Of a stretch of 64,000 nt of DNA, positions 39,870 to 63,869 are shown one piece after another. A program made the position numbers and the translations under genes. Position 1 is the first letter of the stretch. Every line of letters starts with the position of its first letter. Under the pieces are notes generated by a model. The model was not told where the DNA came from. It saw only the letters and a list, made by a program, of their open reading frames with translations, and did no database searches. The DNA is taken from positions 1 through 64,000 of the forward strand of contig KE384176.1 in NCBI GenBank assembly GCA_000424365.1, read 5' to 3'. Source of the stretch: Lachnospiraceae bacterium NK4A144 (GTDB lineage: Bacteria; Bacillota; Clostridia; Lachnospirales; Lachnospiraceae).

Positions 39870-40343
39870 TCAATAATTATCTTCCCAATACTCGTAAGCA
39901 TCATCCCAGTCATCGAAATCATCTCCCCATGCGTCATCCGCATAGTCCTCTGGGGTATCATAATCATCAGGATCATTATTTAAGGAATCAACGTTATTCG
40001 TTGCCGAATATCCAGATGACCATTCTGTCTGATCACTATATGACTTATATTCCTTGCTCTCCGTCAGGTCATCATCCTCAGAATATGTGCTTCTGTAGCT
40101 CCTGTTTTTCTCAAATGATGTATCAGGTTGGTCATCAGAATTCTCTGAAAATGTATCAGTAGAACCATCATCAATATCTACAGATTCAGAAGAATATTCG
40201 CTGCTCTCAAGACTGTATTCAGTTGATTCCGTTGATTCGCTGTCTCCAGTAACATTCTTCTTTGAGACGCAACCGTCAAAAACAAATATAACCAAAACTG
40301 TTAAAATCGTAATAGCTGCTCTAACATACACGTTATCTCGCAT
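39870..40343 (-). CDS. Low-complexity Ser/Asp/Glu lipoprotein-like protein
   Basis: 157 residues with a signal-like N-terminus (AAITILTVLVIFVFDGC) and a long repetitive region of Ser, Asp, Glu and Tyr ending DDWDDAYEYWEDNY. The lipobox is FDGC, with an unusual Asp before Gly. The paralogue at 43145-43618 has a normal FVGC. Both are probably anchored in the outer face of the membrane if processed. Function unknown; such acidic tails can bind cations. Confidence 0.65.
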   Translation of the reverse strand: MRDNVYVRAAITILTVLVIFVFDGCVSKKNVTGDSESTESTEYSLESSEYSSESVDIDDGSTDTFSENSDDQPDTSFEKNRSYRSTYSEDDDLTESKEYKSYSDQTEWSSGYSATNNVDSLNNDPDDYDTPEDYADDAWGDDFDDWDDAYEYWEDNY

Positions 40344-43144: not shown

Positions 43145-43618
43145 TCAATAATTATCTTCCCAATACTCGTAGGCATCATCCCAATCATCGAAATCATCTT
43201 CCCATGCGTCATCCGCATAATCCTCAGGGGTATCATAATCATCCGGATCATTATTTAAGGAATCAAAGTTATCCGTTGTCGAATATCCAGATGACCATTC
43301 TATCTGATCTCTATATGCCCCATAATCCTCGCTCTCTGTCGTATCTTCAGTTTCAGAATATGTGCTTCTGTAGCTCCTGCTTGTCTCAAATAATGTATCA
43401 GGTTGGTCATCAGAATTCTCTGAAAATGTATCAGTAGAACCATCATCAATATCTACAGATTCAGAAGAATATTCGCTGCTCTCAACACTGTAATCAGTCG
43501 ATTCCGTTGATACGCTGCCCCCAGTAACATTCTTCTTTGAGACGCAGCCGACAAAAACAATCATCACCAAAACTGTTAAAATCGTAATAGCAGCTCTAAC
43601 ATACGCATTATCTCGCAT
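43145..43618 (-). CDS. Low-complexity lipoprotein, duplicate copy
   Basis: 157 residues from ATG 43618, preceded by GAGGGA. It matches 39870-40343 over its full length with about 85% identity; the lipobox is FVGC. The same Ser/Asp/Glu repeats and WEDNY end are present. It lies directly upstream of the SIR2 gene on the same strand, with 31 bases between. Confidence 0.65.
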   Translation of the reverse strand: MRDNAYVRAAITILTVLVMIVFVGCVSKKNVTGGSVSTESTDYSVESSEYSSESVDIDDGSTDTFSENSDDQPDTLFETSRSYRSTYSETEDTTESEDYGAYRDQIEWSSGYSTTDNFDSLNNDPDDYDTPEDYADDAWEDDFDDWDDAYEYWEDNY

Positions 43619-43636
43619 AGGTTCCCTCTCCACCTA

Positions 43637-56580: not shown

Positions 56581-57270
56581 CTATTTCTTAGTTTCTTTAT
56601 CTTTCATTTTATCAGAAATAGTCTTTCCTGTGGCACTTCCTACTATGCCTCCGGCAGCTGCTGCCATTCCGGACACTATTCCTACTCCCGCCATAGCCGC
56701 TGCCGATACACCTGCAGACGCTGCTTCTGTACCTGCACTTACACCTACACCTGCAATATCAGCTGCCACATATGACGCAGCCTCCGGGATCGGTGTCTCT
56801 ATATCAGGAACTGCTGTGCCTGCGGCTCCTCCGCTTACATATATATTCGTGGTCTCCTGATATATATTCGTTCCACCGGAAGAATTGACCGTTGCGTGCG
56901 CCGTTGCTGTCGCCGTCGCTGTAGCTCCGGAAGCCGCACCTGCTGATGCAACTGCCACAGGTCTCTTATAGAAGTCCCTGTTGTGAGCCTTTACTCTATC
57001 AACCTTCTGTACAATTTTTTTCTCAGACGAAGTGTAGCTCTGGACTACATCCACAAGAACCTGCCCTGCAAAATTTAGTACAGTCTTTTCCTCTTCCATC
57101 TGCTTTTTGAACTTGTTTAGATCCGCTCTTACAGACTGCAGTAACTCATCATTTCCAAGCTTAGACACGATCTGATTTATCTGGTTTACGTAGTTATCCA
57201 TATCCTTTGCGATGTTTTTCAGCTGTTCGCCCTGCTCGGAAACTACCTTATACGATACTTTATATGCCAT
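56581..57270 (-). CDS. Ala/Gly-rich type VII-linked protein
   Basis: 229 residues; GGCGGTGAGA precedes ATG 57270. Residues 1-100 are helical like WXG100/LXG proteins (KNIAKDMDNYVNQINQIVSKL). Residues 105-215 are extremely rich in Ala, Gly, Thr and Val, including a glycine-zipper-like hydrophobic stretch (AAAMAGVGIVSGMAAAAGG), and the tail is Lys-rich. No named family. Its place right after five WXG100 genes suggests a secreted substrate or an inserted membrane protein of this system. Confidence 0.65.
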   Translation of the reverse strand: MAYKVSYKVVSEQGEQLKNIAKDMDNYVNQINQIVSKLGNDELLQSVRADLNKFKKQMEEEKTVLNFAGQVLVDVVQSYTSSEKKIVQKVDRVKAHNRDFYKRPVAVASAGAASGATATATATAHATVNSSGGTNIYQETTNIYVSGGAAGTAVPDIETPIPEAASYVAADIAGVGVSAGTEAASAGVSAAAMAGVGIVSGMAAAAGGIVGSATGKTISDKMKDKETKK

Positions 57271-57309
57271 CTTCTCACCGCCTTACCTGCTCCTGACATT
57301 CGTATTCAC

Positions 57310-57336
57310 GGGCAAACTGAGTAATCTCGTTTGCCC
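57310..57336 (-). promoter_or_regulatory. Intergenic mRNA hairpin in the type VII locus
   Basis: GGGCAAAC (57310-57317) pairs with GTTTGCCC (57329-57336) between the WXG100 gene at 57355 and the Ala/Gly-rich gene. There is no T-run, so it is more likely an attenuator or RNA-stability element than a terminator. Confidence 0.45.
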
Positions 57337-57354
57337 ATGAACCGTTTCTCCCTC

Positions 57355-57681
57355 TCACTTAAACAGATTGGTGGGCAGCTTGGGAATATTTTTAACATCA
57401 CTCTCTACGGCCTTTATGCTCTTCTCATATTTATCCGCAGAATCATAGAGCGAGTTCACCATCTTTCCCATAACTTCCAGCGCTTCGCTGCATTCATCCA
57501 TAAGTTTCTGAAAACTGCTCTGATACGTAGACGCAGCCTCGCCTGTCCAGATATTTTTTAATGAGTCTATCTGTCCTTTTGCTCCATAGCAGGATTCTCT
57601 TAAGCCAGTCTGTACTTTATCCAGTGACTCTGCAAGAGATCTGAGCTTTGCAGCATCAACATTGATATTTACTTCTGACAT
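57355..57681 (-). CDS. WXG100 protein 5
   Basis: 108 residues; CGGAGG precedes the ATG. Helix-turn-helix hairpin with the turn NIWTGEAAST near residue 45 (the W-x-G motif) and a C-terminal helix ending LYDSADKYEKSI. WXG100 proteins form dimers and are exported by EssC, or pair with larger substrates. Last in a series of five, 17 bases from its neighbour. Confidence 0.88.
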   Translation of the reverse strand: MSEVNINVDAAKLRSLAESLDKVQTGLRESCYGAKGQIDSLKNIWTGEAASTYQSSFQKLMDECSEALEVMGKMVNSLYDSADKYEKSIKAVESDVKNIPKLPTNLFK

Positions 57682-57698
57682 AATGACCTCCGATCTCC

Positions 57699-58007
57699 TC
57701 AGCCTCTTCTTCCCATCTTCTCTACAATATCCATGGCGCGGTTATCCGCCTGACCATAGGTATTGCAGGATTCTCCCAGTGCCTGAGATGCCGACCGGAT
57801 CGCAGCAGCCATCTTTCGGAAAGAATCATGATTTTTATCATACTGTTTCAAATATGTCGCTGCTGCGTCACCTGACCAGACCCGCTTAACAGAGTTCATG
57901 GTTTCTTCCAGAGTCTTGATATTTTTCTGCATGGAAGCATAGATATTGTCCAGTTCTGACTCCGCAGACCTCATCTTTTGGATATTTACCGTATTCTTTG
58001 CTGCCAT
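57699..58007 (-). CDS. WXG100 protein 4
   Basis: 102 residues; AGAGGGGA precedes the ATG. The turn motif is RVWSGDAAATY near residue 44, flanked by two amphipathic helices. The second helix holds SCNTYGQADNRAMD, near the Y-xxx-D/E secretion signal of type VII substrates. Part of the co-directional series. Confidence 0.88.
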   Translation of the reverse strand: MAAKNTVNIQKMRSAESELDNIYASMQKNIKTLEETMNSVKRVWSGDAAATYLKQYDKNHDSFRKMAAAIRSASQALGESCNTYGQADNRAMDIVEKMGRRG

Positions 58008-58021
58008 TGTTCCCCTCTTTT

Positions 58022-58318
58022 CTATGAGATGGATGAAGCCGATGCCTTTGCTGCCTCATCTGCTTCCTTCATCTTCTTCGCTGCTTTCTTCAGATAATCA
58101 GAAACACCGCGCAGATACTTTGCTTTTGCATCGAGGTCACTTTCCGCTGTATTCAGGAATTTCAGAAATGCCTTTCCGGAATCTCCTGTCCACGCCGCGC
58201 TCAGATTATCACGAACCCCCGCAAGCTTTGATTTCGTTTTCCCGGAAAGATCGGACGCCATATTTTCCAAAGCCTGCGCCTGCTGTATCGTCTTTTGATA
58301 ATCAAATTTAACCGCCAT
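58022..58318 (-). CDS. WXG100 protein 3
   Basis: ATG 58318 follows GTGAGG; an in-frame start at 58348 lies in the previous gene. 98 residues, turn AAWTGDSGKAF near 43. The second helix is Lys/Ala-rich (YLKKAAKKMKEADEAAK), more basic than its siblings. Its frame starts inside the end of protein 2, an 11-base distance. Confidence 0.85.
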   Translation of the reverse strand: MAVKFDYQKTIQQAQALENMASDLSGKTKSKLAGVRDNLSAAWTGDSGKAFLKFLNTAESDLDAKAKYLRGVSDYLKKAAKKMKEADEAAKASASSIS

Positions 58319-58328
58319 ATTCAGTACC

Positions 58329-58652
58329 TCACTTGAATGTAGAATCAAACTTCAGAGATTTACCGGTATCCCGAACCTTGTTCTCTGCTTTATCATAGAT
58401 TCCGGCGAGTTCTCTTAAGCCGCTCACATAGCCATTAAGCACCTTCACGATTTCTGCCGAACTTGCTTTTAACTGTGCAGCCGTATTTCTGATATCATCC
58501 GAACTGTCACCCTGCCATTCTCCTCTTGCGCTCTTTATTTCCTGCTGAAACTGTTCGAATATTTTTTCAAGATTCTTTATCAGCGGTTTTAAGGTTTCCG
58601 CTGTATTTGCAAGGAGCGCAGTATCAACCTTTGTTTCGCTTTCTGATGCCAT
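58329..58652 (-). CDS. WXG100 protein 2
   Basis: 107 residues; AAAGGAGAA precedes the ATG. The turn is GEWQGDSSDDI near 46. The first helix is acidic (KNLEKIFEQFQQEIK). A member of the ESAT-6-like family by length and W-x-G turn, but poorly similar to the other four. Confidence 0.85.
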   Translation of the reverse strand: MASESETKVDTALLANTAETLKPLIKNLEKIFEQFQQEIKSARGEWQGDSSDDIRNTAAQLKASSAEIVKVLNGYVSGLRELAGIYDKAENKVRDTGKSLKFDSTFK

Positions 58653-58675
58653 ATATTCTCCTTTATCTGTCCGGG

Positions 58676-58978
58676 TTAGATCTTGAGCTTACCCACGAGT
58701 CCGCCTACTTCACTTTCCGAATTATCAAAATCCTGAGCGATCTCAAGCAGGATCTCCTGCACTTCGTTATACTGATCCACCATCTCATGCAGTGCATCCT
58801 GATCCGCCTGCCAGCTCTGCATAAATCTCGTCGCAGCTTCAGACTTCCAGCTCTTGGAAAGGCTGTTCATGGCATCATTGATCTTTGATACATTTCCGGA
58901 CAGATCTCCTGCCAGACTTCCGATCCTATGTGCTGTCTGCCTGAGTTTAGCGGCATCCACATTTGTCATATCTGCCAT
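58676..58978 (-). CDS. WXG100 protein 1
   Basis: 100 residues; GAGGAGA precedes the ATG. The turn reads KSWKSEAATRFM, so the usual Gly is replaced by Ser. The C-terminus DNSESEVGGLVGKLKI differs from the others. It is the WXG100 gene closest to esaB/essC, as expected for the founding EsxA-like member. Confidence 0.85.
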   Translation of the reverse strand: MADMTNVDAAKLRQTAHRIGSLAGDLSGNVSKINDAMNSLSKSWKSEAATRFMQSWQADQDALHEMVDQYNEVQEILLEIAQDFDNSESEVGGLVGKLKI

Positions 58979-59276: not shown

Positions 59277-62200
59277 TTATACGAGTGGTGTGATCACCCT
59301 TACAGGAACTCCTGTGTCAGAAAGCGCATATCCAAATCCTGCGGGAAGCTGTCTGACTGCATCAGCAGATGACATCTCCCAGTGAAGTACGCTTTGCTGA
59401 TCATACATTCCACCCATATTTACTCCGCTGTCCATTGACGTAAACTGACGGGATACCTGATATCTTGCGAGATCCGATACATCATCTCCTGTCATCGCCG
59501 CAACAAACTGGATCTTATGATTCCTTCCCTTTTCCAGTGCTGTTTCAAAAAATGCGTTCATCCCGTAGTTTTCTGAGTAAACTGTTTCAATAAAGGATGC
59601 ATAATCATTGATAAGGAACAGGATCCGCTTATGTCCCTTGAGCATTTCCGCTGCCGACGTACCATTTTCTGCTGCTTCATGAACAAGCGCATTACGTTCT
59701 CCGAAGGCTCCTACTATCTGATCCTGCATAAGTCCAAACAGCCCTTCATCATCCGTCACGTAATTTCTGATCCCATTAGCATCCGCATACTCTTTCAACT
59801 CCTCATTTCTGCCGTCAAAAATGATGATCTCATTTCCTTTTTTCATACCTTCCAGTGCAAGTGCCTTTAACAGATTTGTTTTTCCTGTCTTTCCGATACC
59901 GATCACGCTGATACAGTATTCTTCATCCATATTCAGTGAAACGATATTCTCACCATCGATCGTCTTTCCGATTGGGAATATGTTTTCAGGGTAATCTGCG
60001 GTTTCAGACATCAGATCTTTTATACTTAAGGAATCAAGCACCTGTCCTGGGCGCTTTGCTCCTTTTGTCTTTGGCGCTACATTTACGGATTGCAGATTCT
60101 TCTTTATGCTCTGCGCCTGTGATAAACCTTCTGTTTCCCGTACAGGAAGCGCCACCTGGAATTCTACGCAGCCGGGAGCTTTTACAAGACCACGTCCCGG
60201 AGTTCTTCCCTCCGGCATGATCTCCGTATGATCACCGACAACAGCTTCATATTCAAATCTGTCAGGCATCTGAAGCGCGATTCCGGAGTTAAAGTTCTGC
60301 CTTATCCTGCTTCGGAGATCTCCTGATCCATTTGTAGTTACAACTGTGAAAATTCCATAGCTTACACCTTCTCTTGTAAGAACAGAAAGATCATCATCAA
60401 ATTTGTCATAGCTCTCATAGAACGCAGTAAAGTTATCGATCACAAGCATCAGAGCCGGGCAGTCATTATTATGCTGCACGTATTCCTTAAAGGAACCTAT
60501 GCCCATAGATGCGAACTTTTTCTTTCTGTCCGCAAGTTCTGATGCAAAGAATTCAAATATGTCATTCAGCTTGTCATCTTCTCCGTCAAAGCACACACCG
60601 CCGATATGCGGCATCGAAGCAAATACCGCCATCGTTCTGGACGAGAAATCGAGGATGTAGATATTTACATCTGAAGGCGTATACTTCGTTACAGCTCCGT
60701 AGATTATAGTCTGCAAAAGCGTTGTCTTTCCTGATCCTGAAGTTCCGCATATCAGTAGATTTCCATCTGCGACAAAGTCCGCATATGCTGTATACTGGCT
60801 CTGGATCTCCGGGTCATCAGCAAGACCGATCGGCATACGGAGAGAATATCCCTCCGTCTTTTCTGTATGAAGTTCTTCGAGGTAGATCCTCTTTTCCAGT
60901 GCCGGAAGCCAGATCTGACGCACTGATGCTACATCATGCTCCTTTGCGATCTCCGCAGCATATTTTACTATCGCATCGAGCTGAGTCACTTTCTGGATAT
61001 TGTCGGACTTCTTTTTCTTATTCTTCTTTTTAGGTACTCCGTTCTTACCGATGAGGTTGATAAGTTCTACCTTTGCATTCTTATCATCGCTAAAAGGTAT
61101 ATCTGGTTCATATGCCGCGCCTGACCATCCTGACTGGAATTCTTCAAAAATCTCATCACTTCCAACCTGAAAATATCCGCGACCGGTTCCGGTAATATAG
61201 GCTGCATCCGGTCTCTTGAGCATTTCATTGGAGTCAGACTTATCAGCAACTCTGAGGCATAGACGGAATCTCGTATTGGACCAGATCTCATCATCTACAA
61301 CACCGGACGGTTTCTGCGTCGCAAGGATCAGGTTTACACCAAGCGAACGTCCTACACGTGCCGCAGATACCAATGATCGAACGAATTCCGGCTGCTCCTT
61401 CTTAAGCTCTGCAAACTCATCTGCAATGATGAGAAGATGCGGCATAGGCTCTGTCGCTACACCGGAACGGTAAAGCTCGATATACGCATCGATGTGCTTT
61501 ACCTTAAAGTCATTAAATAGTTTCTGCCTGTGCTTTATCTCCGCATTGATAGAAAGAAGCGCTCTGTTTGTCGCATTTCCTCCGAGATTCGTGATCACAC
61601 CTGACAGATGCGGGAGACCCTCAAAGCTCTGCGCCATTCCGCCGCCCTTATAGTCGATCAGGATAAACGCTACTTCATCCGGATGATAATTTATTGCGAG
61701 TGAAAGGATATAGCTCTGAAGTGTTTCTGATTTACCGGAACCTGTAGTACCTGCTACGAGACCGTGAGGACCGTGATATTTCTCATGGATATCCAGGAAC
61801 AAAGGCTGATTTCCTGATTTATAACCGACCATTGCCCTCATGCTTTCATAAGTACGGTTTTCCAGCCAGCGGTGATAGATATCCAGATCCTCAACATTCG
61901 AGGTTTTATACATATCAAGGAACGTCAACAGATCCGGTATTCCTGCCGATACGCCCATTTCACGAAGCCGTACACCGGAAAGCGTTCTTGCAAACTTCTC
62001 TGCCTTCTTAAGTGAAAGCACGTCAAACTTGACATCTTCTCTTTCCGGAAACGCATTTACTGTGGACATAAAATTGTGCTTTTCCGAGCTGTCGGTTATT
62101 ATCGCTGTACAGCCGCTTGGCAGCTTATCCGGAGAGTCTGCGATCATTACAACAGATATTCCCATTTCATCTGTCGGATTCAGGAGATACTTAGCGATCG

Positions 62201-63869
62201 CTTCTTCCTCCAGCAGAGAATAGTCAGCGATGAGAAATACATAGTGTGGCAGGATTTTTTTATCATCTTCCTGTTTTGCTGCTTCCTTTCCAACTTTTTC
62301 TACCCGGTCACGTATCACACCGGAAAGGTAGTACATTACATCACCGATACTGTTTTTGTCACAGCACATCATACGGATCTTTCCGTCAGGAGACCATACA
62401 TGCGGCAGAAACCTCATATAATTCCACTGATCACGTTCTTTCTGTGGAAATACCACGCACATCCTGACATCTGTATACGGATGCGCGCTGGCGATCTGTA
62501 CGCTGATAACTCTTGCCAGATTCAGTGCCTTTTCTCTATCCGGAGAGATGATACCGGCAAAGCGGTTTCTGTAAAGTGAAAGCGATACCGGAACATCGCG
62601 AAGTACCGACATTGCAGCCTTTATTTCTTCTGTCTTGCTGTTCAGCGGATCAAATTCCTGCATAGCCTGTTCTTTAGGAATCTCGATCACATTAAATGAC
62701 GGTATGTCACCCTTACCCAGACGGACATCCAGGAAATCCTCGTGCACCCAGCTCTTTTCCCATAGTCTGGCAGTTCCGTTTATACCTATTTCTGCAGCTT
62801 CTTCTGCATTTGGATAGGTTCTGTCAAGGATACCGGCATTTTCCTCCATCTTTTCCCGGATCCTCTTCATCATTTTTACAGCATACTCTTCATAGGTGGT
62901 TACACGTTTTTTTTCTGCTTCCGCATAAACCTTGTCCTGATGATTTGAATTTATGACTGCCCATACAGCGCCGATCCCGGCTGCTCCGACACTCATCACG
63001 AGTCCTGCCGCTCCAAATCCTGACCCCATGGACAATACTGCTCCAAGTGCCATAGGAATGATCATTGTAAACGACGGACCTATGGTCAGTATAAGAGGCT
63101 GCTTTTCCTGTTTCTGCTTCGGCGGGCATTTTTCCAGAGTAAACACCTGCTTATCGATCAATTCCAGTTTTCTGGGTGTTCTTAGGAAATATTTTTCCTC
63201 CTCTGCCACAGCTGTTTCATCGCCTCCTGCAGAGGTGATGATGATCTCTTTCAGGTCTTTTATCTTGCAATTGTTTTTAGGATTATTGACCGCAATGGAA
63301 TTTCCAAGATAAACGATCTTTAATCCGATGATATAAACGATGTCACCAAACTCAAGCTCACGCTCTCCTTCGAGCATTTTTCCGTTTACAAAGGTTCCGT
63401 TCACACTTCCAAGATCTTTTATAACAGCGCGACCGGACGCGATGCTGATCCCTGCGTGCTTTGCAGAAACAAATTTATTTGCATAGCAGATAGTATTTCC
63501 GGAGTCATTACCGATACTGATATTTGTCTGTGCTTCCGCTTTCAGCAGGTATTTCTTAAACTGCGTATTTCCTTCTGTAACTTCTTCTGCCGTTAACGAA
63601 AAGACCTGACCATCCGGAAGCTCACAGTTCAGAAACAGCCCTTCATGCAATTGAACTTTTTCCACTGCCTTTTCTTTCTGCAGCAGGACAAACTGTCCAC
63701 CACCTGACAGAGTCCATACCCCATCCCAAACTTCAAAAGGCAGGACTATATCATCATCTCTTCCGCTTATATACGGTTTTATCTCCATCGGAACTTTTTT
63801 ATTGTCCACACTCGGAAGATATAATTCGCAAAATCCGTTTTCAAAAACGGCAGTCAATAGATAACTCAT
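59277..63869 (-). CDS. essC: EssC, type VII secretion ATPase
   Basis: 1530 residues. Residues ~110-190 are an FHA domain with VSAKHAGISI and DLGSVNGTFVNGK. Two membrane helices follow at ~256-306. Three FtsK/SpoIIIE domains follow: AGTTGSGKSETLQ (Walker A, near 706) with IIADEFAE (Walker B), CGTSGSGKTTLLQ (near 1045) with a degenerate VIDNF, and IGIGKTGKTNLLK (near 1325) with INDY. Only the first has a full Walker B, as in other EssC proteins. It forms the hexameric motor that exports WXG100 proteins. GGAGGGA precedes ATG 63869. Confidence 0.95.
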   Translation of the reverse strand: MSYLLTAVFENGFCELYLPSVDNKKVPMEIKPYISGRDDDIVLPFEVWDGVWTLSGGGQFVLLQKEKAVEKVQLHEGLFLNCELPDGQVFSLTAEEVTEGNTQFKKYLLKAEAQTNISIGNDSGNTICYANKFVSAKHAGISIASGRAVIKDLGSVNGTFVNGKMLEGERELEFGDIVYIIGLKIVYLGNSIAVNNPKNNCKIKDLKEIIITSAGGDETAVAEEEKYFLRTPRKLELIDKQVFTLEKCPPKQKQEKQPLILTIGPSFTMIIPMALGAVLSMGSGFGAAGLVMSVGAAGIGAVWAVINSNHQDKVYAEAEKKRVTTYEEYAVKMMKRIREKMEENAGILDRTYPNAEEAAEIGINGTARLWEKSWVHEDFLDVRLGKGDIPSFNVIEIPKEQAMQEFDPLNSKTEEIKAAMSVLRDVPVSLSLYRNRFAGIISPDREKALNLARVISVQIASAHPYTDVRMCVVFPQKERDQWNYMRFLPHVWSPDGKIRMMCCDKNSIGDVMYYLSGVIRDRVEKVGKEAAKQEDDKKILPHYVFLIADYSLLEEEAIAKYLLNPTDEMGISVVMIADSPDKLPSGCTAIITDSSEKHNFMSTVNAFPEREDVKFDVLSLKKAEKFARTLSGVRLREMGVSAGIPDLLTFLDMYKTSNVEDLDIYHRWLENRTYESMRAMVGYKSGNQPLFLDIHEKYHGPHGLVAGTTGSGKSETLQSYILSLAINYHPDEVAFILIDYKGGGMAQSFEGLPHLSGVITNLGGNATNRALLSINAEIKHRQKLFNDFKVKHIDAYIELYRSGVATEPMPHLLIIADEFAELKKEQPEFVRSLVSAARVGRSLGVNLILATQKPSGVVDDEIWSNTRFRLCLRVADKSDSNEMLKRPDAAYITGTGRGYFQVGSDEIFEEFQSGWSGAAYEPDIPFSDDKNAKVELINLIGKNGVPKKKNKKKKSDNIQKVTQLDAIVKYAAEIAKEHDVASVRQIWLPALEKRIYLEELHTEKTEGYSLRMPIGLADDPEIQSQYTAYADFVADGNLLICGTSGSGKTTLLQTIIYGAVTKYTPSDVNIYILDFSSRTMAVFASMPHIGGVCFDGEDDKLNDIFEFFASELADRKKKFASMGIGSFKEYVQHNNDCPALMLVIDNFTAFYESYDKFDDDLSVLTREGVSYGIFTVVTTNGSGDLRSRIRQNFNSGIALQMPDRFEYEAVVGDHTEIMPEGRTPGRGLVKAPGCVEFQVALPVRETEGLSQAQSIKKNLQSVNVAPKTKGAKRPGQVLDSLSIKDLMSETADYPENIFPIGKTIDGENIVSLNMDEEYCISVIGIGKTGKTNLLKALALEGMKKGNEIIIFDGRNEELKEYADANGIRNYVTDDEGLFGLMQDQIVGAFGERNALVHEAAENGTSAAEMLKGHKRILFLINDYASFIETVYSENYGMNAFFETALEKGRNHKIQFVAAMTGDDVSDLARYQVSRQFTSMDSGVNMGGMYDQQSVLHWEMSSADAVRQLPAGFGYALSDTGVPVRVITPLV

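What the first reader, a model, noticed from the sequence alone, without database searches (positions are those of the whole stretch)
56581..57270. Ala/Gly/Thr-rich protein with glycine zipper at the end of the type VII operon
A WXG-like helical start is joined to a strongly biased, zipper-like hydrophobic tail. This resembles pore-forming or membrane-inserting segments and has no family known to me.
Basis: inference. Interest (0 to 1): 0.55.

Follow-up and report, generated by a model that had tools for sequence, protein, structure and literature searches.

The report
WXG100-like secretion protein with zipper tail
This gene, the last of a gut bacterium's type VII secretion operon, encodes a helical-hairpin protein that is probably exported and carries a fast-changing alanine/glycine-rich tail that may sit in a membrane; it varies a known theme, and the pore-forming idea is untested.

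Summary
Window 56581-57270 (minus strand) encodes a 229-aa protein directly after five WXG100 genes of an EssC operon. Residues 1-101 model as a WXG100-type helical hairpin: the 19 best Foldseek hits are EsxA/EsxB, and its profile matches the operon's own WXG100 proteins (E=1.4e-5, probability 80%). The WxG turn is replaced by LGND; a type VII signal Y79xxxE83 remains. Residues 112-229 are 60% Ala/Gly/Ser/Thr. The zipper is not more than composition predicts in one protein (p about 0.2), but AxGxxxG recurs in all five lineages compared. Gene order is fixed in 8 of 8 loci. Intact copies occur in exactly the 7 of 48 genus genomes that show this EssC type; an eighth holds a broken remnant. No downstream gene is shared by all lineages. 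Most likely it is a standing substrate or partner of this secretion system: the hairpin targets EssC and the tail acts outside the cell at a membrane or surface. Export, membrane insertion and toxicity are untested. TelE and TspA share the style but are LXG toxins with immunity proteins. New variant of a known kind.

The parts
56581..57270 (-). Gene of the finding, 229 aa (P0001): WXG100-like hairpin plus Ala/Gly/Ser/Thr-rich tail
   Evidence: homologues
56959..57270 (-). Residues 1-104: helical hairpin (H2-37, turn, H42-101); LGND turn in place of WxG
   Evidence: AlphaFold2 (block-mean pLDDT 56-80); hhalign to WXG100 set E=1.4e-5; Foldseek
57001..57036 (-). Residues 79-90 YTSSEKKIVQKV: matches the extended T7SS signal HxxxD/ExxhxxxH
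   Evidence: motif definition from PMC3935865 (passages)
56938..56991 (-). Residues 94-111, hinge KAHNRDFYKRPVAVASAG; 13 of its 18 positions invariant in 7 of 7 aligned homologues
56584..56958 (-). Residues 105-229: variable Ala/Gly/Ser/Thr-rich tail (23-33% identity to the other lineages, against 45-85% in the hairpin)
56839..56853 (-). Residues 140-144 TTNIY: recurring TTN-aromatic motif inside the tail; function unknown
   Evidence: a similar, loosely defined motif in 7 of 7 aligned homologues
56638..56703 (-). Residues 190-211: hydrophobic stretch ending in AxGxxxG (A205, G207, G211), with the next Lys at 216
57355..57681 (-). WXG5: WXG100 protein directly upstream; proposed secretion partner (inferred)
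   Evidence: PF06013; adjacency in 8 of 8 loci
57699..58007 (-). WXG4: WXG100 protein
   Evidence: PF06013
58022..58348 (-). WXG3: WXG100 protein (TTG ORF start as listed; an in-frame ATG at 58318 is the more likely start)
   Evidence: PF06013; alignment
58329..58652 (-). WXG2: WXG100 protein
   Evidence: PF06013
58676..58978 (-). WXG1: WXG100 protein
   Evidence: PF06013
59007..59261 (-). 84-aa protein in the YukD/EsaB position (no Pfam match; name by position and recall only)
59277..63869 (-). EssC ATPase with FHA domain
   Evidence: TIGR03928 and PF00498

Best explanation
P0001 is a fixed, non-toxin-cassette member of this type VII system: a WXG100-like protein exported by the operon's EssC. 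Proposed mechanism: the hairpin (residues 1-101) folds like EsxA/EsxB and pairs with a neighbouring WXG100 protein, most likely WXG5. Its YxxxE-type signal is read by EssC, and the pair is exported. The tail is then left outside, where the A/G-rich arm acts as a flexible spacer. The terminal AxGxxxG helix, which has no K/R in the window protein between residue 105 and the zipper and Lys soon after it, packs against a membrane (own envelope or a contacted cell) as a small-residue oligomer. Supported by computation: hairpin fold, signal motif, fixed operon position, co-occurrence with this EssC type, AxGxxxG kept in an otherwise fast-changing tail. Inferred: partner identity, export, membrane insertion, oligomerisation.
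For: Hairpin: AF2 helices 2-37 and 42-101; EsxA/EsxB are Foldseek ranks 1-19; hhalign E=1.4e-5, probability 79.9%; NCBIfam ESAT6_2 E=2e-5 (24.7 bits, far below its cut-off of 100). Signal YTSSEKKIVQKV, with YxxxE in 6 of 7 and FxxxE in 1 of 7 aligned homologues. Order EssC-84aa-WXG1-5-P0001 in 8 of 8 loci. Intact P0001 in 7 of 48 genus genomes, the same 7 that show an EssC of 58.9% identity or more (the next is 39%); Fisher p=1.4e-8, or 1.1e-7 if the remnant genome is counted as a carrier, uncorrected for relatedness. One genome without this EssC keeps only a P0001 remnant with a stop in the tail. Tail: all 8 family members score 1.68-2.05 on the Kyte-Doolittle 19-residue maximum, against 0.10-0.78 for WXG1-5; AxGxxxG in all five lineages, 0.12% of shuffles.
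Against: The WxG motif is absent and Pfam WXG100 does not match P0001. The Foldseek E-values are weak (best 0.036) and long helical hairpins of other kinds align as well. Beyond YxxxE the extended signal is loose: its third position is hydrophobic (Ile) in 2 of 7 homologues and Cys, Ser or Asn in the others, and its last position fails in G010. The tail is only marginally hydrophobic: the summed Hessa score is unfavourable (+1.5 to +4.2) in 8 of 8. Zipper counts within single proteins do not exceed shuffles, except GxxxG in G010 at p=0.03, and GxxxG alone in all five lineages is matched by 8.5% of shuffled sets. The tail model is not confident (block-mean pLDDT 24-42 from residue 101 on). C-terminal charge beyond the first K/R varies. 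26 of the 48 genus genomes are below 90% complete or above 5% contaminated, so some absences may be gaps. No export data exist.
Confidence: 0.5

Rival explanations
1. It is an antibacterial pore-forming or depolarising toxin, working like TelE or TspA: the hairpin replaces the LXG domain and the zipper tail permeabilises a rival's membrane.
For: C-terminal zipper-like stretch after a type VII helical targeting domain, as in TelE (PMC10434224 passages); fast tail divergence with a conserved hairpin; a sister T7SS in G010 encodes a weakly hairpin-matching protein with a Gly-rich hydrophobic region beside DUF4176. In five of eight loci (G000, G030, G009, L007, G010) the next gene is on the same strand, so an unshared immunity gene is not excluded.
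Against: No downstream gene is shared by all lineages: YunG-like in the three closest genomes, other genes elsewhere, and in G022, G025 and G028 the next gene is on the opposite strand. No second copy in the own genome (the other two matches have E 0.32 and 0.66), and the position is fixed. Tail style is kept rather than swapped for other activities.
Confidence: 0.18
2. It is a surface-display protein like PE_PGRS: the hairpin is the export ticket and the Ala/Gly/Thr-rich tail is a flexible, low-complexity coat or wall-spanning arm that does not insert into membranes.
For: Architecture of a type VII hairpin followed by a variable Gly/Ala-rich tail; tail indels and high replacement (pN 0.060 against 0.000 in the hairpin between window and G009; indels); marginal hydrophobicity; no confident structure in the tail.
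Against: The C-terminal block keeps AxGxxxG in five of five lineages and a Kyte-Doolittle maximum above 1.6 in 8 of 8, which a pure coat would not need.
Confidence: 0.22
3. It stays inside as a chaperone or docking subunit of the secretion system (Lap-like or membrane-tethered through its tail).
For: Fixed operon position; in the sister system of G038 the position after the YukD-like gene is held by a tail-less 118-aa protein that matches the hairpin profile best among that locus's ORFs (E 1.9e-6).
Against: It keeps the YxxxE-type export signal, and a tail evolving this fast would be unusual for an internal part (inference).
Confidence: 0.1

Closest known systems
TelE (Streptococcus gallolyticus T7SSb LXG effector)
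   Same: Helical type VII targeting domain and a glycine-zipper stretch at the C terminus (PMC10434224, passages)
   Different: TelE is a much longer LXG protein (its key glycine is residue 470) with immunity protein TipE; P0001 has a hairpin of about 100 aa, no LXG match and no downstream gene shared by all lineages
TspA (Staphylococcus aureus)
   Same: Type VII substrate with a membrane-active C-terminal domain (PMC7456083, passages)
   Different: LXG protein encoded away from the ess locus, with membrane immunity protein TsaI (DUF443 family); P0001 lies in the operon and has no LXG match
WXG100 / ESAT-6 proteins (EsxA, EsxB)
   Same: Helical hairpin and a C-terminal YxxxD/E-type signal
   Different: No WxG; second helix runs to residue 101 in the model; a 125-residue tail is added
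PE_PGRS proteins of mycobacteria (architecture partly recalled; starts of abstracts seen in a search listing)
   Same: Type VII hairpin followed by a variable glycine/alanine-rich tail
   Different: P0001 has no PE motif near its start and comes from a different phylum; one copy in the own genome; PGRS repeat type is recalled, not tested

Membership tests
WXG100 (ESAT-6) family, canonical | Helical hairpin of about 100 residues | tested here: met
   AF2; Foldseek ranks 1-19 are EsxA/EsxB, TM-score by target 0.73-0.85, (no E-value below 0.001; other helical hairpins score alike)
WXG100 (ESAT-6) family, canonical | W-x-G motif in the turn | tested here: not met
   LGND at the aligned place
WXG100 (ESAT-6) family, canonical | Pfam PF06013 above cut-off | tested here: not met
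   No PF06013 match at E up to 1 for P0001
WXG100-like type VII substrates | YxxxD/E signal in the second helix | tested here: met
   YxxxE in 6 of 7 and FxxxE in 1 of 7 aligned homologues
WXG100-like type VII substrates | Full extended pattern HxxxD/ExxhxxxH | tested here: inconclusive
   Y79-E83-I86-V90 fits in P0001 and its near copy L005; third position is Cys, Ser or Asn in the other five of seven, last position fails in G010
WXG100-like type VII substrates | EssC-dependent export | not testable with these tools
   needs a secretion assay
LXG polymorphic toxins | LXG domain (PF04740) | tested here: not met
   not among P0001 matches at E up to 1
LXG polymorphic toxins | Linked immunity gene | tested here: inconclusive
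   no gene after P0001 shared by all lineages, and the next gene is on the opposite strand in 3 of 8 loci; lineage-specific or unlinked immunity genes are not excluded
Glycine-zipper pore formers (TelE-like) | C-terminal glycine zipper | tested here: inconclusive
   AxGxxxG in 5 of 5 lineages (0.12% of shuffles), but counts within one protein do not exceed shuffles in most members
Glycine-zipper pore formers (TelE-like) | Membrane permeabilisation | not testable with these tools
   needs an expression assay
T7SSb (the secretion system) | EssC of the TIGR03928 family | tested here: met
   1140.7 bits against 778.4
T7SSb (the secretion system) | EssB/YukC present | tested here: not met
   PF10140 has no match at E up to 1 in the own genome, (of 14 control genomes 5 ring, B. 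subtilis among them, 1 over the cut-off)
T7SSb (the secretion system) | EsaA and EssA present | not tested
   no search run

The most novel reading that the evidence does not exclude
P0001 is not a toxin but a dedicated exported translocator of an undescribed, EssB-less type VII subtype: EssC sends it out with its WXG100 partners and its zipper tails assemble a channel in the envelope or in a contacted cell, through which the system's other substrates pass.
Probability: 0.1. Interest if true: 0.75.

Novelty: new variant of a known kind. Interest (0 to 1): 0.4.

Why it matters
How type VII substrates cross the thick wall and reach a target is not settled; [quoted passage not shown] A small, operon-fixed hairpin with a zipper tail and no obvious immunity gene is a simple test case for whether type VII systems export membrane-inserting parts of their own rather than only toxins. 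If it is an ordinary surface coat or toxin, it still adds a compact architecture: the roughly 100-aa WXG100-like hairpin itself, not an LXG domain, carrying the tail.

Tried and rejected
Rejected: that the zipper alone is significant (shuffle p 0.18-0.65 for GxxxG in seven of eight members, 0.03 in G010; 0.06-0.70 for the three-site zipper). Rejected: an early reading that G010 keeps only WXG4 and WXG5 (my ORF filter hid the others); searches show all five. Led nowhere: PHROGs, viral contigs (7 stretches, none confirmed), plasmids and phages by tblastn (no match), PDB sequence search (best E 0.27), wider family and order scans (one match besides the window's own among 397 genomes and two among 392; E 4.8e-5 to 2.6e-4, partial matches, two of them inside frames of 787 and 878 aa, judged chance; these samples hold few genomes per genus and left out known carriers). 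Judged chance too: the G085 match (7.9e-4, inside a 482-aa frame) and a second G028 match (0.0017, inside a 666-aa frame). The weak G038 match was kept only as a tail-less sister-system hairpin. The model of the upstream membrane protein was too poor to use (mean pLDDT 39.9); the window genome's copy of that protein has no Pfam match at E up to 0.1. VIA-align gives Z about 10 to EsxB and equally to ESCRT-III, seryl-tRNA synthetase and designed bundles, so it does not single out EsxB. Literature: no title or start of abstract listed by the searches describes this protein; these cover only the open library. PMC12558993 was opened (outline and passages) as a possible precedent and is not one.

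The shuffle test used five hand-chosen blocks, one per lineage, and the lineages are related, so its figure is a guide only. The A4 alignment leaves out the near-identical G030 copy and the truncated G006 copy.

Full report
What is there. The ORF lies on the minus strand at 56581-57270 and encodes 229 aa. Reading along that strand the operon is EssC (63869-59277), an 84-aa protein in the YukD/EsaB position (no Pfam match, named by position), five WXG100 proteins (all above the Pfam cut-off), then this gene. The source is a Lachnospiraceae genome; the closest named match found is Lachnospiraceae bacterium MC2017, 97% identical over the whole protein.

The two halves. AlphaFold2 on five sequences gives helices 2-37 and 42-101 at moderate confidence (block-mean pLDDT 56-80) and no confident model for 103-229. 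Foldseek's ranks 1-19 are EsxA or EsxB structures, though no E-value is below 0.001 and long helical hairpins match many folds. A profile of residues 1-107 from seven homologues aligns to a profile of ten WXG100 proteins of these operons with E=1.4e-5 and probability 79.9%, and the LGND turn falls opposite WxG. Residues 79-90, YTSSEKKIVQKV, fit the pattern HxxxD/ExxhxxxH that PMC3935865 (passages) reports for WXG100 C termini and proposes as an extended type VII signal. Of seven aligned homologues, six keep YxxxE and one has FxxxE; the third position of the extended pattern is hydrophobic in only two of seven (Cys, Ser or Asn in the rest), and the last fails in G010. Pfam WXG100 itself does not match and the WxG is missing, so I call it WXG100-like, not a WXG100 protein.

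The tail. Residues 105-229 change fast: identity to the window protein is 23-33% in five homologues against 45-85% for the hairpin, and 88% against 100% in the near copy L005. Yet the style is constant: 55-65% Ala+Gly+Ser+Thr in 8 of 8 members, a loosely defined TTN-aromatic motif midway in 7 of 7 aligned, a hydrophobic stretch, then Lys/Arg. In the seven-row alignment the invariant tail positions after the hinge are A120, A205, G207 and G211. GxxxG counts do not exceed shuffles in single proteins except G010. AxGxxxG in all five lineages is matched by 0.12% of shuffled sets, plain GxxxG by 8.5%. Kyte-Doolittle maxima are 1.68-2.05 while a simple Hessa sum stays unfavourable in all eight: membrane insertion is possible, not predicted with force. 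Between residue 105 and the end of the zipper the window protein has no Lys or Arg; two of seven aligned members have one or two.

Linkage. A best-hit search of nine loci shows EssC-84aa-WXG1-2-3-4-5-P0001 in the same order in eight, two of which (G022, G025) hold only the end of EssC because the contig ends there; the ninth (G006) holds only a P0001 remnant whose frame stops in the tail. In the 48 held genomes of the genus the family is found in eight (seven intact, one remnant), and an EssC of 58.9% identity or more is found in exactly the seven with intact copies, the next best being 39%. Only 22 of the 48 are at least 90% complete and at most 5% contaminated. In wider samples only the window's own genome gives a credible match (397 genomes of the family, 392 of the order), but these samples hold few genomes per genus. 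So P0001 comes and goes with this secretion system. Replacement counts agree with a constrained hairpin and a freer tail: between the window and G009, pN is 0.000 in the hairpin and 0.060 in the tail; between the window and G030 0.008 and 0.018. Between the window and G030 the hairpin's synonymous divergence (0.373) is oddly higher than the tail's (0.078), which may be local recombination.

Is it a toxin? Known type VII toxins with membrane-active or zipper tails, TelE and TspA, are LXG proteins with immunity proteins (passages of PMC10434224 and PMC7456083). P0001 has no LXG match, and what follows it differs between lineages: a YunG-like gene in G000, G030 and G009, other same-strand genes in L007 and G010, and an opposite-strand gene in G022, G025 and G028. 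For contrast, the second T7SS of G010 encodes a 355-aa protein with a weak match to the hairpin profile and a Gly-rich hydrophobic region beside a DUF4176 gene, closer to a toxin cassette. I therefore place the toxin reading below the standing-component reading, without excluding it.

The system. No EssB/YukC is found in the held genome, so by that component this is not a complete T7SSb. The eight variants T7SSc-j of PMC11217815 (abstract, sections 9, 11, 12, 13 and 15, and passages of others) did not, in what I read, include one with five WXG100 genes, an FHA-bearing EssC and no kinase or phosphatase in the cluster; figures and supplementary data were not seen. That no kinase or phosphatase lies in this cluster rests on looking at the ORF list, not on a family search. 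A second T7SS with kinase- and phosphatase-like genes lies elsewhere in the same genome (names by recall from sequence).

Verdict. The most likely role is an exported, operon-fixed WXG100-like protein whose tail works at a membrane or surface outside the cell.

Noticed in passing
window 57271-57354: The gap between WXG5 and P0001 is 84 nt in the window but 16 nt in G030 and G009; the extra DNA holds a perfect 8-bp inverted repeat (57310-57336), a pattern chosen after seeing it, found once in the window and in none of 100 shuffles, without a T run.
   Followed up: partly
L035 (G000:C29:1-20000): A second, different type VII system in the same genome: EssC 34-35% identical, with kinase-, phosphatase- and FHA-like genes (names by recall from sequence).
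   Followed up: partly
L042 10643-11710 and 11729-12022: In G010's other T7SS, a 355-aa protein with a weak hairpin match and a Gly-rich hydrophobic region sits beside a DUF4176 gene; looks like a zipper-type effector.
   Followed up: no
L023 7995-8366: G006 lacks the operon genes but keeps the start of the P0001 gene up to a stop in the tail, next to the same genes as in G025 and G028.
   Followed up: partly
window 57355-58978 against 59277-63869: WXG1-5 have synonymous divergence 0.03-0.14 where EssC has 0.16-0.30 in the same three genome pairs, as if the WXG genes were very highly expressed or recently exchanged.
   Followed up: no
L025 5367-5723: In G038's sister T7SS a 118-aa tail-less protein, the best hairpin-profile match of that locus, sits before five small ORFs, four of which match the window's WXG100 proteins.
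   Followed up: partly
window 39870-40343 and 43145-43633: Two near-duplicate acidic, Ser-rich ORFs with a lipoprotein-like start (by eye).
   Followed up: no
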